A DNA stretch of 48,490 nt from contig JAFGNM010000128.1 of the NCBI GenBank assembly GCA_016927015.1, forward strand, positions 1 to 48,490, in the 5' to 3' direction. The stretch comes from Candidatus Bathyarchaeota archaeon (GTDB lineage Archaea > Thermoproteota > Bathyarchaeia > Bathyarchaeales > Bathycorpusculaceae). This document shows, piece by piece, positions 9,703 through 14,272 of this stretch (positions within the stretch are counted from its first letter, which is position 1; each line of letters opens with the position of its first letter). The notes below the pieces were generated by a model. That model saw only the letters and a list, made by a program, of their open reading frames with translations. It searched no databases and had not been told where the DNA came from. The translations under genes were made by a program, and so were the position numbers.

Positions 9703-9882
9703 CGCAGAGACCGCCACCACAACAAAAACCCAAATAGAACGGGATGTTTTAGGAAAAAGTTTAGAGGAGACAGACGAAGCTTTCGTCGTTGTCTGCGCCT
9801 CAGGAGTATATGGTTCTTCTGTTTCTGCGAGGATAGGCTGATTGTGATTATGTTTTTTAAAAATGCTTTGATTATTTGTCAT
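9670..9882 (-). CDS. Possible small tail-anchored protein
   Basis: 70-aa ORF with one C-terminal hydrophobic segment (SIWVFVVVAVSALHFFW); overlaps the argS 3' end by 33 nt; no clear RBS. Confidence 0.25.
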   Translation of the reverse strand: MTNNQSIFKKHNHNQPILAETEEPYTPEAQTTTKASSVSSKLFPKTSRSIWVFVVVAVSALHFFWCHYAN

Positions 9883-9929
9883 TTTGAAGCACAGAAAATC
9901 AAAAAAGGAGGAGTGGCGCGGATTATGAA

Positions 9930-10430
9930 GTGTATGAACAATGCTGGGTTAAGGTGAATGAAGTCGTGACTAAAGGTTTGCCTTGGACGGTTGAAGAGGA
10001 AGCGTTGCTTAAAGCACTTGTCGAAGCTAAAACGCCCCTAAGCGTGGTAGCTGTGAAGCTTGGGCGGCAGCATGGTGCCATACTCCTTAAGTGCCGACGC
10101 CTCGGGCTGTCGTTTAGTGAGGCTACCGCCGCAGCGATTTCTCTGCCCGCAGAGTTGCCTAGCGTTGAAGAGACTTTGAAGAAGTTGGCGGGTGCTTTGG
10201 AGGCGGCGTGTGCCTCCGGACTTAGCAGGGTGGAAGTTCAACGACTGCAGGTTGTCGCCACGTTGGCTAAAACGTACAAGGAAATCCTTTCTGATTATAT
10301 CAATTATCGAGAGATTGAAGCTAAATTGAATGATATGGAGGCGAAGTATGCCGCGTTACTGCAGCAACAAGCCGCGGGCGTTGCGTCCCAATCAGATTCT
10401 GCCCAAGTGGCAAAAAATCCAGCAGAATGA
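9930..10430 (+). CDS. Terminase small-subunit-like protein (Myb/SANT-like HTH plus helical oligomerisation region)
   Basis: GTG start. LPWTVEEEALLKALVEAKTPLSVVAVKLGRQHGAILLKCRRLGLS looks like a SANT/HTH segment. Lies directly upstream of and overlapping the large terminase. Confidence 0.65.
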   Translation: MYEQCWVKVNEVVTKGLPWTVEEEALLKALVEAKTPLSVVAVKLGRQHGAILLKCRRLGLSFSEATAAAISLPAELPSVEETLKKLAGALEAACASGLSRVEVQRLQVVATLAKTYKEILSDYINYREIEAKLNDMEAKYAALLQQQAAGVASQSDSAQVAKNPAE

Positions 10431-11799
10431 CCAGCTTGTAGAAGAAGCCATGCTGGAAAAAACTCAGAAGCTCAGTGCTGACCCTGTGGTTTTCTGTAAA
10501 GAAATCTTGGGTTTTAAGCCGTTTGCTTACCAAGAACAGTTTATTCAGCTGTTCAAAGAGAACCAGTTCACGGCTGCCCGTTGGAGCAGGCAGAGCGGCA
10601 AAAGTTTCATCGTTGCAGCCTTGCTACTGTGGTATGCTGTAACGCATTCAAACAGCGCGTTAGGCATTGTTGGTCCGTCGTGGCGGCAAACCAAACGCAT
10701 ACTTCAGCGAATAGCAACGTTCACTCGCAGATTGCCTGCGGGTATTGTGTTTAAGCCGCAGAGAACCCAGATTCACTTCACGAACGGCAGCACTATCGAG
10801 GCTTTTCCGAACAACCCTGAAACCATCCGAGGACCAACGCTGCATGTTGTGTACGCTGACGAATTCAATTATGTTGCCAACGACCAAGAACTCTACGACG
10901 CCATCCTCTACACACTGGGAACTACAGATGGAAAGTTCGTTTGCAGTAGCACGCCTTGGCATACTGACAGTGTTTTCTTTAAGATTTTTACTCATAAGGA
11001 CTTCCAAGACTTCAAAACCCTCCATGTGCCAGTGGAGAAAGCGTTGGAGCCTAACGGTCCACTGAAAACGAGCATAATCAGGAAAATCCGAACCCAGATG
11101 GGTGACGACCCTGCGCGGTGGCGTCGTGAGATGGAAGCGGAGTGGGCGGAAGACGAAGATGTCTGGCTAACCCATAGCCTAATCGCCTCATGCATCGGCA
11201 CATCAAAGACGTGCGGTGAAGACCTCCAAGAATACAATCCTGAAACGCAGCGCAGAGGCGAGTTCTTTGCGGGGCTGGATTTGGCTCAAACCCGAGACTA
11301 CAGCGTTCTCTCCGTAGTGGAAAGGCAAAATGACAAGCTGTTTCTGCGTCACGTGAAGATTTTCCAGCAGCCCACCGTGTACGCCACTGTGTTAGGCTAC
11401 ATGAAGGCGCTGCAGGACCGCTGGGGCAGATTCGAAAGAATCCGCGTAGACTTCACACGCGAAGGACCCAGCATAATCGCAGACATGGAGAACGCAGGCA
11501 TAAACAACGCCGAAGGCGTAAACTTCAGCGTGCCCCGCAAAAGCGAAATGGCAAGCTTACTCAAACAGCGCATGGCAAGCCACCAGTTCTTCTATCCCAT
11601 GATGAATTGGGAGCGCCCCTACAGAGGCGACATATGCACTGAACTCAACGTAGAACGCTACAGCCTACACAAAGACGGCACTATAGGCTACCACCACCCA
11701 ACAGGCACACACGACGACGTATTCTGGGCAACAGCACTAGCAGTATACGCCACAGCAAACATGGAACCAGAACCATTCCTAACAATAATACAACGCTAA
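10348..11799 (+). CDS. Phage-type terminase large subunit (ATPase-nuclease)
   Basis: Walker A-like RWSRQSGKSF, Walker B LHVVYADEFNYV, RNase H-like nuclease GLDLAQTRDYSVL, C-terminal THDDVFWATALAVYA. GGAGG about 7 nt before ATG 10348 supports that start over 10330. Confidence 0.92.
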   Translation: MPRYCSNKPRALRPNQILPKWQKIQQNDQLVEEAMLEKTQKLSADPVVFCKEILGFKPFAYQEQFIQLFKENQFTAARWSRQSGKSFIVAALLLWYAVTHSNSALGIVGPSWRQTKRILQRIATFTRRLPAGIVFKPQRTQIHFTNGSTIEAFPNNPETIRGPTLHVVYADEFNYVANDQELYDAILYTLGTTDGKFVCSSTPWHTDSVFFKIFTHKDFQDFKTLHVPVEKALEPNGPLKTSIIRKIRTQMGDDPARWRREMEAEWAEDEDVWLTHSLIASCIGTSKTCGEDLQEYNPETQRRGEFFAGLDLAQTRDYSVLSVVERQNDKLFLRHVKIFQQPTVYATVLGYMKALQDRWGRFERIRVDFTREGPSIIADMENAGINNAEGVNFSVPRKSEMASLLKQRMASHQFFYPMMNWERPYRGDICTELNVERYSLHKDGTIGYHHPTGTHDDVFWATALAVYATANMEPEPFLTIIQR

Positions 11800-11875
11800 C
11801 AAATTTAGCATTAACAATCAATCTCAATCAGTAGCGTGATAAAGCATATAGGCAGATGAGGAAATAATAGGCACC

Positions 11876-12622
11876 ATGCCTTCAGAATACAAGTTTTTGA
11901 GATTCGAGATAGTAGGTTTGTTTTCAGTAATATTCTTCTTAATTGGGATACTTCCACTAATTAGAATAGAGCTTATTGCAAACACTTTTTCAGCTTTAAG
12001 CACGTCATTATCTATTTTAGCAAGTCTACTACTGCTCTCTCTTCCATTGGGATACTGGGAGCATCAGTTTATCGTAAATAAATACCGTTCTGAGAAAAGA
12101 AATCGTCCCGCAATGCTTTTTTTGCAAGAAATGATTCTTACAAAGATTCCTGAGAACGGGAAAAAGGGCAGAGCATTCTATAATACTTTAAGCACAAGAA
12201 AGAAGAGTGCTCTTCTAGCGAGTCTTCTTGATCTCTGTGTTTATTCTAATACGTCAGGGATTTCCGATAGTATTTACGAACGACTTGCAGATCGCTGGTC
12301 TCATTTTTATGCAAGAAAAGCTGTTGGAGTACTTGCACCCATAATAGGAATTATTCTTTTTATAATAGGTCTTCTCGCAGGTACTGCGATCTGGTCTAAT
12401 GCATTTTCGTTCGGTTGGCAAAGAATTGTTATTTCTGGTGCAATCTGGGCTGTGATATTTGCAATTAGCCTTTACCTAATCAATCGTTACTCCATTAAAA
12501 TCTGGGAAGAGGTCTGTTTTCTGGAAAGCGAGATAGTGCTATCAAAAGAAGAAGAAAATAGACTCGCCGTTGAAAATGTAATAGAACGTGTTGCGGAACA
12601 TCCAGAATTTTTCTCGCCATAA
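11876..12622 (+). CDS. Four-TM membrane protein, unknown function
   Basis: Two N-terminal and two C-terminal hydrophobic helix pairs around a soluble central region. AT-richer than flanking genes. Confidence 0.75.
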   Translation: MPSEYKFLRFEIVGLFSVIFFLIGILPLIRIELIANTFSALSTSLSILASLLLLSLPLGYWEHQFIVNKYRSEKRNRPAMLFLQEMILTKIPENGKKGRAFYNTLSTRKKSALLASLLDLCVYSNTSGISDSIYERLADRWSHFYARKAVGVLAPIIGIILFIIGLLAGTAIWSNAFSFGWQRIVISGAIWAVIFAISLYLINRYSIKIWEEVCFLESEIVLSKEEENRLAVENVIERVAEHPEFFSP

Positions 12623-12631
12623 TTCCGTTTA

Positions 12632-12706
12632 GTGGAGGCAACGAAAACAAGAAAAGTGCTAGCAGTTAATAGTATTATCGCGTTTGTGCTAATAGTGAGC
12701 GTCTGA
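12632..12706 (+). CDS. Possible 24-aa TM micro-ORF coupled to the next gene
   Basis: GTG start: VEATKTRKVLAVNSIIAFVLIVSV*. Stop overlaps the next start as TGATG at 12704..12708. Confidence 0.3.
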   Translation: MEATKTRKVLAVNSIIAFVLIVSV

Positions 12707-14028
12707 TGATTACAAGCGACAACGAAATTCATCTATTGCTTGATTCAGAAAGTATCGATTGCAATATATCCTCACTAAGTAGAAGAGCCAGATCCCTTCT
12801 AAAGTATCGCATTGTTAAACCGCTCGTTTTCTTTAGGACGCCTGATTTAGCAAATAACGACATGCTAAGAGAGATAATCCCTATTGAGATTGTTCGTGAA
12901 AAAGAGAGAATTGTTTGCGTTAAAGTTCCTGTGGGAAAAATGAAGGCAACATATGGGATTAATAAGTTTGCGAATGTATATGCCCAAAAATTTGGCGAAA
13001 TTCTATTCAATAAGAAGATTCTAACTCCTGACGAAATAAGACCAATTGAGCTAGCGTTCATTCAGTCTTCTTTAAACGAGTTTAGCGGTCGCAATCTATT
13101 AGTAACTGAAAACAAGGTTCTGTTGGAGAATCGTCAATGGCTTCAGGGCAGATTCTCAACGCCTTTAAACATTTTCTCTATGGAAGAAGCAGCTGAAATG
13201 ATTGACTTATCATGGAAAAAGGATTCTTTATTTTATATCTCACCGTATCTTACCACTTCAAAGCATAATTGGTATTGGCTTTCCTTTAGAACAAAAGTTC
13301 CTAATTATCATGTAGACGTTAGCCGATTTAAAAGTGGAAATACTCTTGGCGACCTTTTTAGGAGATCGATTTTAGATGCTTTTTCGCAAAGATTTTGCTT
13401 TCTATTAATGAGCATTGACGAGATGGGCTTCAAATTTTGTGCCCCTGTTAATAATGACACGATTGAGGATATGACTTACCATTTCAACTATTTTATCCTA
13501 TTAATTACTGGAATTTTTGACAGCCTTGCTTTACATACAAAAAATCAATATCATCTCTTTGAAGACTCGGAAAAAATTAGTCCGTATAAGATATCATTAA
13601 GAAGCAAAATTGGCAAGAAATTTTTGCAAGCGGTGGAGCAAAAGAACCCTGCCCTTAGAAAGCATATTCATGATAACGTTGATTTAATTAACGCCCCTTA
13701 TTTACTCAGGGAACTTATAGCTCATAGGGAAAGTCTACATCCTCAGCATTTTAATATTGACGGCGCGAACGCCAACTTCCTTTTTGTTACAGATAATTTT
13801 TCAGAGTGTTTAAGAAGACTTGGTGACGACCAAGAAAAAGGTGGTTGCTCAAAGTTTGGGGTATACAGCCGCACATTTTTAAGTCCGTTCATTTTTGCGA
13901 AAGCAATGGCCACCTTGATTTCAAAGTTCTGCAATCGATATTTAGAGCTGCTAGGGTACAAAAATTCTATACTGGAATCTAACGCAAGCGATTTTTTGGC
14001 TTTCCAAGCGGATAATTTGGGGTTTTAA
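12706..14028 (+). CDS. 440-aa unknown protein with HEPN-like C-terminal half
   Basis: Helical segment FNYFILLITGIFDSLALHTKN followed by RELIAHRES, an RX4H motif at 13708..13725. Confidence 0.6.
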   Translation: MITSDNEIHLLLDSESIDCNISSLSRRARSLLKYRIVKPLVFFRTPDLANNDMLREIIPIEIVREKERIVCVKVPVGKMKATYGINKFANVYAQKFGEILFNKKILTPDEIRPIELAFIQSSLNEFSGRNLLVTENKVLLENRQWLQGRFSTPLNIFSMEEAAEMIDLSWKKDSLFYISPYLTTSKHNWYWLSFRTKVPNYHVDVSRFKSGNTLGDLFRRSILDAFSQRFCFLLMSIDEMGFKFCAPVNNDTIEDMTYHFNYFILLITGIFDSLALHTKNQYHLFEDSEKISPYKISLRSKIGKKFLQAVEQKNPALRKHIHDNVDLINAPYLLRELIAHRESLHPQHFNIDGANANFLFVTDNFSECLRRLGDDQEKGGCSKFGVYSRTFLSPFIFAKAMATLISKFCNRYLELLGYKNSILESNASDFLAFQADNLGF

Positions 14029-14062
14029 ATTCACAGGTTGTTTATGCTACTTGTGGCATCCT

Positions 14063-14141
14063 GCACAACCAGACTGCAACCTAAACCTAACTTGGACAAC
14101 AAAACGCAATGTGCCGGGCAGTCTGTTGGAAGTAGTTGTGC
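14063..14141. ncRNA. Candidate structured RNA / long stem-loop
   Basis: GCACAAC+CAGACTGC (14063..14077) pairs with GCAGTCTG (14118..14125) and GTTGTGC (14135..14141): 15 perfect bp with one 9-nt bulge and a 40-nt loop. Confidence 0.4.
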
Positions 14142-14272
14142 TTAGCAATCTTTCACTTCTACTAACAGAAAAAAAAACAAACCCAGCCCGTCAGCAACCA
14201 AGACAATGGGAAAAAGTTATAGATTAGTCAGGCATTAAGCCTTCACTATTAACGGTCATAGAGGTTTAAAAT

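What the first reader, a model, noticed from the sequence alone, without database searches (positions are those of the whole stretch)
11876..14141. Candidate defence/TA-like cassette: 4-TM protein, micro-ORF, HEPN-like protein and structured RNA
Immediately after the terminase pair lies an AT-richer block: a 4-TM protein, a possible 24-aa TM micro-ORF coupled by TGATG to a 440-aa protein with a HEPN-like RX4H motif, and a strong stem-loop just after its stop. A membrane protein plus HEPN-type RNase candidate next to phage-derived genes is a plausible anti-mobile-element arrangement. I recognise neither large ORF as a named family.
Basis: inference. Interest (0 to 1): 0.7.

Follow-up and report, generated by a model that had tools for sequence, protein, structure and literature searches.

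The report
Possible toxin riding a lone-terminase insertion
The two unfamiliar genes are the payload of a 4.5-kb insertion in an archaeal chromosome built around a virus-derived DNA-packaging gene pair whose relatives sit beside known antiviral or toxin genes, so one of them is probably an RNA-cutting toxin or defence protein, though the membrane protein next to it is not shown to be its partner.

Summary
With TerS and TerL they form one insertion, about 9752-14244. A same-genus genome has argS next to MIPS with nothing between, and the insert is bounded by an imperfect ~33-bp repeat. B is a real family: full-length relatives (~31% identity) lie on haloarchaeal plasmids and in another genome of the same family. 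R335-x4-H340 is invariant, even where only 15 columns are. A HEPN fold is suggested but not demonstrated (best Foldseek match HepT, not significant). A has no relatives found, and B's relatives lack A, so the two-gene system is not supported. The micro-ORF and stem-loop are not beyond chance. The larger result is the context. The TerL belongs to a 15-member chromosomal clade (support 100/100) of TerS-TerL pairs without virion genes, with intact catalytic motifs and dN/dS of about 0.06-0.09. Nine of the 14 other loci have PIN or VapBC, SPARTA-like, IetS, NucC-like, CHAT or methylase genes immediately downstream, against 1 of 10 upstream neighbours tested. B is most likely a toxin-type ribonuclease carried as payload.

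The parts
9752..9784 (.). left copy of the imperfect repeat bounding the insertion (decayed copy of the MIPS upstream region)
   Evidence: matches the uninterrupted argS-MIPS spacer of same-genus genome G001; local score 16 against the right copy, maximum 14 in 2000 shuffles
9930..10430 (+). TerS-like HTH protein, 166 aa
   Evidence: paired with TerL in proviruses and in the lone loci
10330..11799 (+). terminase large subunit (TerL), 489 aa, with Walker A, Walker B and nuclease motifs intact
   Evidence: Pfam Terminase_6N 3e-15, PHROG 2 1e-37; motifs and dN/dS
11876..12622 (+). ORF A, 248 aa, four hydrophobic segments, orphan membrane protein
   Evidence: hydropathy; no family or homologue
12632..12706 (+). 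possible 24-codon ORF overlapping B's start (TGATG); probably chance
   Evidence: chance about 3%
12706..14028 (+). ORF B, 440 aa, PHROG 33637-like; RX4H at R335-H340; candidate HEPN-like C-terminal half and possible PIN-like N-terminal half
   Evidence: PHROG 33637 E 1.8e-17; haloarchaeal plasmid relatives E 3e-44; same-family relative G490 profile E 1e-85; conserved residues
14209..14244 (.). right copy of the repeat, part of the conserved MIPS upstream region

Best explanation
The block is the cargo end of a ~4.5-kb insertion (about 9752-14244) between argS and the myo-inositol-1-phosphate synthase gene of a Bathyarchaeia-like archaeon. The insertion consists of a lone TerS-TerL pair and then genes A and B, with no recognisable integrase or virion gene. 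B is most likely a toxin-type or abortive-infection ribonuclease. Its all-helical C-terminal half with an invariant R-x4-H would cut RNA in the HEPN manner, and its N-terminal half (possibly a degenerate PIN-like domain) would bind target or trigger. On infection, or if the element were lost, B would be released and would stop growth, protecting the element and its neighbours. A is an orphan membrane protein of the same insertion; it might anchor or control B, or be unrelated. Shown: the insertion and its boundaries, the lone-terminase clade, cargo variation at the same position, B's family and its conserved RX4H. Inferred: the HEPN fold, RNA cleavage, the trigger, any role for A, and how the element moves.
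For: Empty site in G001, both flanks matching the same ~28 bp. Lone TerS-TerL clade of 15, support 100/100. Catalytic motifs intact and dN/dS 0.06-0.09. Defence- or TA-type genes directly downstream in 9 of 14 other lone loci: SPARTA-like; PIN x3, DUF6602/NucC-like, IetS, CHAT, N6-methylase; MazE-PIN pair. Left-hand neighbours: 1 of 10. Same site with different cargo in G354 and G220, empty in G492, a TerS scar in G493. B relatives lie on plasmids and, in G490, 65 nt after a MazE/AbrB-type ORF. RX4H invariant among 15 invariant columns and inside the most confident helix of the C-terminal model, pTM 0.68. HepT, a HEPN toxin, has the highest Foldseek probability listed, 0.54.
Against: No significant fold match and a low-confidence full-length model, mean pLDDT 49. 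No Pfam, NCBIfam, PADLOC or solved-structure hit for B. The residue after the conserved R is E or P, not the usual N, D or H described in PMC3710099. B's own relatives are not next to terminases. No antitoxin is identifiable in the window. Nothing about activity can be tested here.
Confidence: 0.5

Rival explanations
1. A and B are a genuine two-gene defence system: a membrane protein that kills or signals and a HEPN-type nuclease that senses or executes.
For: Adjacent on one strand 83 bp apart, both AT-rich and so probably acquired together; the setting favours defence cargo.
Against: A has no homologue anywhere searched; B's relatives lack A.
Confidence: 0.15
2. B is not a nuclease but a plasmid- or virus-borne protein of other function (partitioning, regulation, host take-over), and the RX4H is structural.
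For: Family present on haloarchaeal megaplasmids and in a PHROG of unknown function; no fold match; RX4H common by chance.
Against: RX4H stays invariant at 31% identity and in the G456 fragment; sister elements carry toxins and nucleases at the same position.
Confidence: 0.25
3. The whole insertion is a decaying remnant of a tailed provirus, and A and B are leftover viral genes.
For: TerS-TerL of tailed proviruses are the nearest outside relatives; the same genome holds a decayed provirus terminase.
Against: TerL is intact and under purifying selection; 15 lone pairs form one clade; 79 of 80 viral contigs with a related TerL keep the provirus neighbours that are absent here; A and B occur in none of those 80.
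Confidence: 0.1

Closest known systems
HEPN superfamily toxins (HepT, Abi-type; PMC3710099)
   Same: RX4H invariant in an all-helical C-terminal half; mobile, TA-like setting; HepT has the highest-probability, non-significant Foldseek match
   Different: No sequence or significant structural match to any HEPN family; residue after R is E or P rather than the usual N, D or H; no MNT partner
Swt1 (PIN plus HEPN architecture, eukaryotes; PMC3710099)
   Same: A possible PIN-like N-terminal topology before a HEPN-like half
   Different: Order recognised only from a low-confidence model; PIN acids not conserved; eukaryotic Swt1 HEPN is described as inactive whereas RX4H is kept here
PHROG 33637 (unknown function)
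   Same: B matches over residues 6-342, E 1.8e-17
   Different: The family has no described function, so membership explains nothing
Bathyarchaeia tailed proviruses with defence genes (BATPV1 with pPIWI, BATPV2 with DrmA/C; PMC11705971)
   Same: Tailed-virus terminase with defence genes carried in the same element (sequence relation to BATPV itself not tested)
   Different: The window element and its clade have no tail, lysis-like or P-loop neighbours such as the proviruses examined here have
Phage satellites (PICI and similar; from general knowledge)
   Same: Small element with packaging genes and no virion genes, carrying defence cargo
   Different: No integrase, no regulator pair, no demonstrated helper; carries TerL as well as TerS

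Membership tests
HEPN superfamily | Conserved Rx4-6H motif | tested here: met
   R335 and H340 invariant in window, G490, G456 fragment and haloarchaeal relatives
HEPN superfamily | Polar residue (usually N, D or H) after the R | tested here: inconclusive
   E in window, G490 and G456, P in haloarchaea; the source says 'typically', not always
HEPN superfamily | Four-helix HEPN fold | tested here: inconclusive
   C-terminal model all helical, pTM 0.68; best HEPN match HepT prob 0.54, E 0.67
HEPN superfamily | RNase activity dependent on R and H | not testable with these tools
   needs biochemistry
PIN superfamily (N-terminal half of B) | Conserved acidic active-site residues | tested here: not met
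   D13 conserved, but the T-x-D position reads T-E-N, T-N-D and T-N-R in the relatives
PIN superfamily (N-terminal half of B) | Sequence-profile relation to PIN proteins | tested here: not met
   hhalign against seven PIN proteins: probability 0.2%, touching only the VT-x-D segment; low power with such shallow profiles
PIN superfamily (N-terminal half of B) | beta-alpha-alpha-beta-alpha-alpha-beta-alpha-beta-alpha topology | tested here: inconclusive
   secondary-structure order compatible, but pLDDT about 40
Two-gene defence or TA system A+B | Partners conserved together | tested here: not met
   no A near any B relative, no A homologue
Known defence systems (PADLOC) | Match to a described defence gene | tested here: not met
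   no PADLOC match for A, B or B's relatives
Phage satellite | Lacks virion genes but carries packaging functions | tested here: met
   only TerS, TerL, A and B in the insert
Phage satellite | Own integrase and att sites | tested here: inconclusive
   bounding repeat and empty site present, but no integrase among the ORFs
Phage satellite | Packaging in a helper's particles | not testable with these tools
   needs virus and culture

The most novel reading that the evidence does not exclude
In one family of Bathyarchaeia-like archaea, a lineage of tailed-virus terminase pairs has left the virus and become a chromosomal, movable, virion-less platform under strong purifying selection, next to which defence and toxin genes are repeatedly exchanged. 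It would be a satellite-like element that packages its cargo into the particles of related viruses, or a terminase turned against them. A+B is one such payload, and B a new ribonuclease toxin family.
Probability: 0.35. Interest if true: 0.82.

Novelty: new variant of a known kind. Interest (0 to 1): 0.62.

Why it matters
B is an uncharacterised, horizontally moving family shared by very distant archaea, and it has a concrete testable active site. The setting matters more. Terminases are viral packaging motors, and an intact, selected, monophyletic set of them without any virion gene, with SPARTA-like, IetS, NucC-like, VapBC or methylase genes downstream, would be an unusual archaeal vehicle for defence genes. 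It also gives a simple search handle: genes downstream of lone TerS-TerL pairs are candidates for new defence systems.

Tried and rejected
Close-relative searches of genome contigs and viral contigs with B or its alignments found nothing; only the alignment search of genome contigs gave relatives, all haloarchaeal. The phrog_33637 search of the phylum gave three hits besides B; the one read (L004) is a GatB-like tRNA amidotransferase subunit (by eye), rejected as chance. Weak hits for A in G313 and G137: G313's overlaps ABC-transporter permease-like ORFs and G137's gives no comparable ORF; both rejected. Foldseek on the whole model gave GPCR-like noise and is not used. Profile comparison of B with PIN proteins gave nothing. 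The general search for flanking repeats in other lone loci was at control level except L078 (tRNA-3'-end-like, 27.6 against a control maximum of 23.7) and L120 (15-bp exact, 29.5 against 21.8). ARAGORN and Rfam did not confirm a tRNA at L078. Conserved element ends shared by all lone loci were not found.

Full report
WHAT IS THERE. The window is contig C38 of a 1.93-Mb archaeal genome bin; by its gene content and the matching literature on relatives it is Bathyarchaeia-like (inference, no name is given). ORF A (11876-12622, 248 aa) and ORF B (12706-14028, 440 aa) follow a TerS-like HTH protein (9930-10430) and TerL (10330-11799). A has four hydrophobic segments in two pairs, B none. The A-B region has about 37% GC against roughly 45-50% in most of the window. 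The micro-ORF is GTG 12632 to TGA 12706; such a frame arises in about 3% of shuffled gaps and is not seen before B's relative in G490. The post-stop stem-loop is not special (z 0.10 over 146 nt, about -1.5 and -1.6 for sub-segments), and Rfam is empty.

IT IS ONE INSERTION. In same-genus genome G001 argS is followed directly by the inositol-phosphate synthase gene (MIPS) with about 120 nt between. The window's left flank matches that spacer up to 9784 and its right flank from 14209, and both cover the same ~28 bp. The two copies (9752-9784, 14209-14244) score 16 in local alignment; none of 2000 shuffles exceeded 14. The right copy belongs to a MIPS upstream region conserved across genera. So about 4.46 kb, TerS-TerL-A-B, entered as a unit or grew there. 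No ORF in it resembles an integrase or a virion gene.

THE TERMINASE PAIR BELONGS TO A VIRION-LESS CLADE. Related TerL genes occur in 32 of 61 relatives and, at E up to 1e-100, in 43 of 257 genomes of the class. In most proviruses examined TerS-TerL lies between a conserved small gene with a small membrane gene upstream and a ~480-aa P-loop protein downstream. These neighbours lie within 2.5 kb of TerL in 79 of 80 IMG/VR contigs with a related TerL. They are absent from the window and from 14 other chromosomal loci, and the 15 TerLs form one clade with support 100/100 (a first tree gave the four then known as a clade, 100/99). Full-length IMG/VR TerLs in that scan reach at most 67% identity to the window's (one partial 70%), whereas lone chromosomal ones reach 82%. 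I counted L122 as lone because its only provirus-type hit was a 24% match on the other side. Two further lone pairs (L076, L137) and one IMG/VR contig (L227) fall outside the clade. Catalytic motifs (Walker A and B, the nuclease acids) are kept in all 15, and dN/dS in five pairs is 0.06-0.09. Three of the 15 (L078, L119, L121) show one stop inside the translated stretch, which for some may be the natural stop at the end. L071 has only about 2 kb of contig on its left.

WHAT SITS NEXT TO THE LONE PAIRS. Directly downstream: short Argonaute plus TIR-APAZ, SPARTA-like (L078); PIN proteins (L118, L123, L128); a MazE-PIN pair (L122); a DUF6602/NucC-like nuclease (L120); IetS subtilase (L121); a CHAT protein (L124); an N6/N4 methylase with an unknown 325-aa partner (L125). 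That is 9 of 14 other clade members; the rest have a SAM methyltransferase (L070), a PIN-like ORF by eye only (L119, no Pfam hit), a transposase by eye (L126) or ordinary host genes. On the left side 1 of 10 tested neighbours is of that kind (a PIN in L123). By hand, Fisher's exact one-sided P is about 0.01. L120 and L121 share the left neighbourhood (a MazG-type gene) and the TerS-TerL, yet carry different cargo; in L120 rpl3 follows. In G492 the MazG-type gene lies directly beside rpl3, and in G493 only a 29-codon TerS scar with Dus remains there. This is what a cargo slot in a movable element would look like. The method of movement is unknown. L078 has a tRNA-3'-end-like repeat on both sides, 27.6 bits against 23.7 for controls, unconfirmed as a tRNA.

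ORF B. PHROG 33637 (unknown function) matches at 1.8e-17. tblastn finds full-length relatives on four haloarchaeal plasmids, about 29% identity, E 3e-44, four more haloarchaeal genomes, and a profile search adds a same-family genome G490 (E 1e-85) and a contig-edge fragment in G456. None lies beside a TerL in the stretches read. The haloarchaeal copies are about 95% alike and lie near an AbiEi-type gene that is divergent from B. In G490 two MazE/AbrB-type ORFs stand upstream, one ending 65 nt before B, a TA-like arrangement. R335, H340 and R341 are invariant in all alignments, including the one where only 15 columns are invariant. AlphaFold with only about two effective sequences gave a poor full-length model (pLDDT 49) and a fair C-terminal one (pLDDT 64, pTM 0.68) in which the RX4H sits in one of the best-predicted helices. 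Foldseek is not significant; HepT is the highest-probability match shown (0.54). The N-terminal strand-helix order is compatible with PIN, D13 is invariant, but the other acids and the profile test fail. I therefore do not file B as a PIN or HEPN protein. It may work like a HEPN ribonuclease.

ORF A. No family and no relative. It might be a membrane effector, as in the Sulfolobus short-Argonaute system cited in PMC11705971, an exclusion protein, or an unrelated gene; nothing here decides.

LITERATURE. Defence genes in Bathyarchaeia tailed proviruses, including pPIWI, are known (PMC11705971), and defence systems are common in Bathyarchaeia (PMC10848311). HEPN rules are from PMC3710099. Searches for lone, orphan or domesticated terminases and for archaeal satellites of this type returned nothing relevant by title and abstract; this library is incomplete, so novelty is provisional.

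VERDICT. The specific pairing, the micro-ORF and the RNA are not supported, and the HEPN claim is plausible but open.

Noticed in passing
window 9930-11799; L070, L071, L078, L118-L128: A 15-member chromosomal clade of TerS-TerL pairs without virion genes, TerL under strong purifying selection, with defence or TA genes downstream in 9 of the 14 others.
   Followed up: partly
L120 (G354), L121 (G220), L145 (G492), L141 (G493): One site beside rpl3 or its neighbours seen with TerS-TerL plus a NucC-like nuclease, with TerS-TerL plus IetS, empty, and with only a TerS scar.
   Followed up: partly
L078:4269-10380: Lone TerS-TerL plus SPARTA-like operon bounded by an imperfect 20-bp repeat that looks like a tRNA 3' end; neither ARAGORN nor Rfam called a tRNA.
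   Followed up: partly
L022:885-2216 and upstream: B's relative in G490 is preceded by two MazE/AbrB-type ORFs, one ending 65 nt before it: a possible toxin-antitoxin pair.
   Followed up: partly
L075:10519-15521; L196:10988-13168: Long Argonaute (PprPIWI-like, 1e-72) and an N6 methylase downstream of TerL in a G015 provirus; a viral contig carries the same Argonaute at 88% identity.
   Followed up: partly
L074:2427-5594: HKD-Snf2 helicase of defence type (PADLOC C3a139, 8e-63) downstream of the provirus TerL in G003.
   Followed up: no
L079:5973-7391 and relatives: A conserved ~480-aa P-loop protein follows TerL in most of these proviruses; its role is unknown.
   Followed up: partly
L080 (G000:C13:11873-13267): The window's own genome has a decayed provirus with four stop codons in its TerL.
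   Followed up: no
whole genome G000: Only one PIN-domain match in the genome bin, so PIN genes are not a common background in this genome.
   Followed up: no
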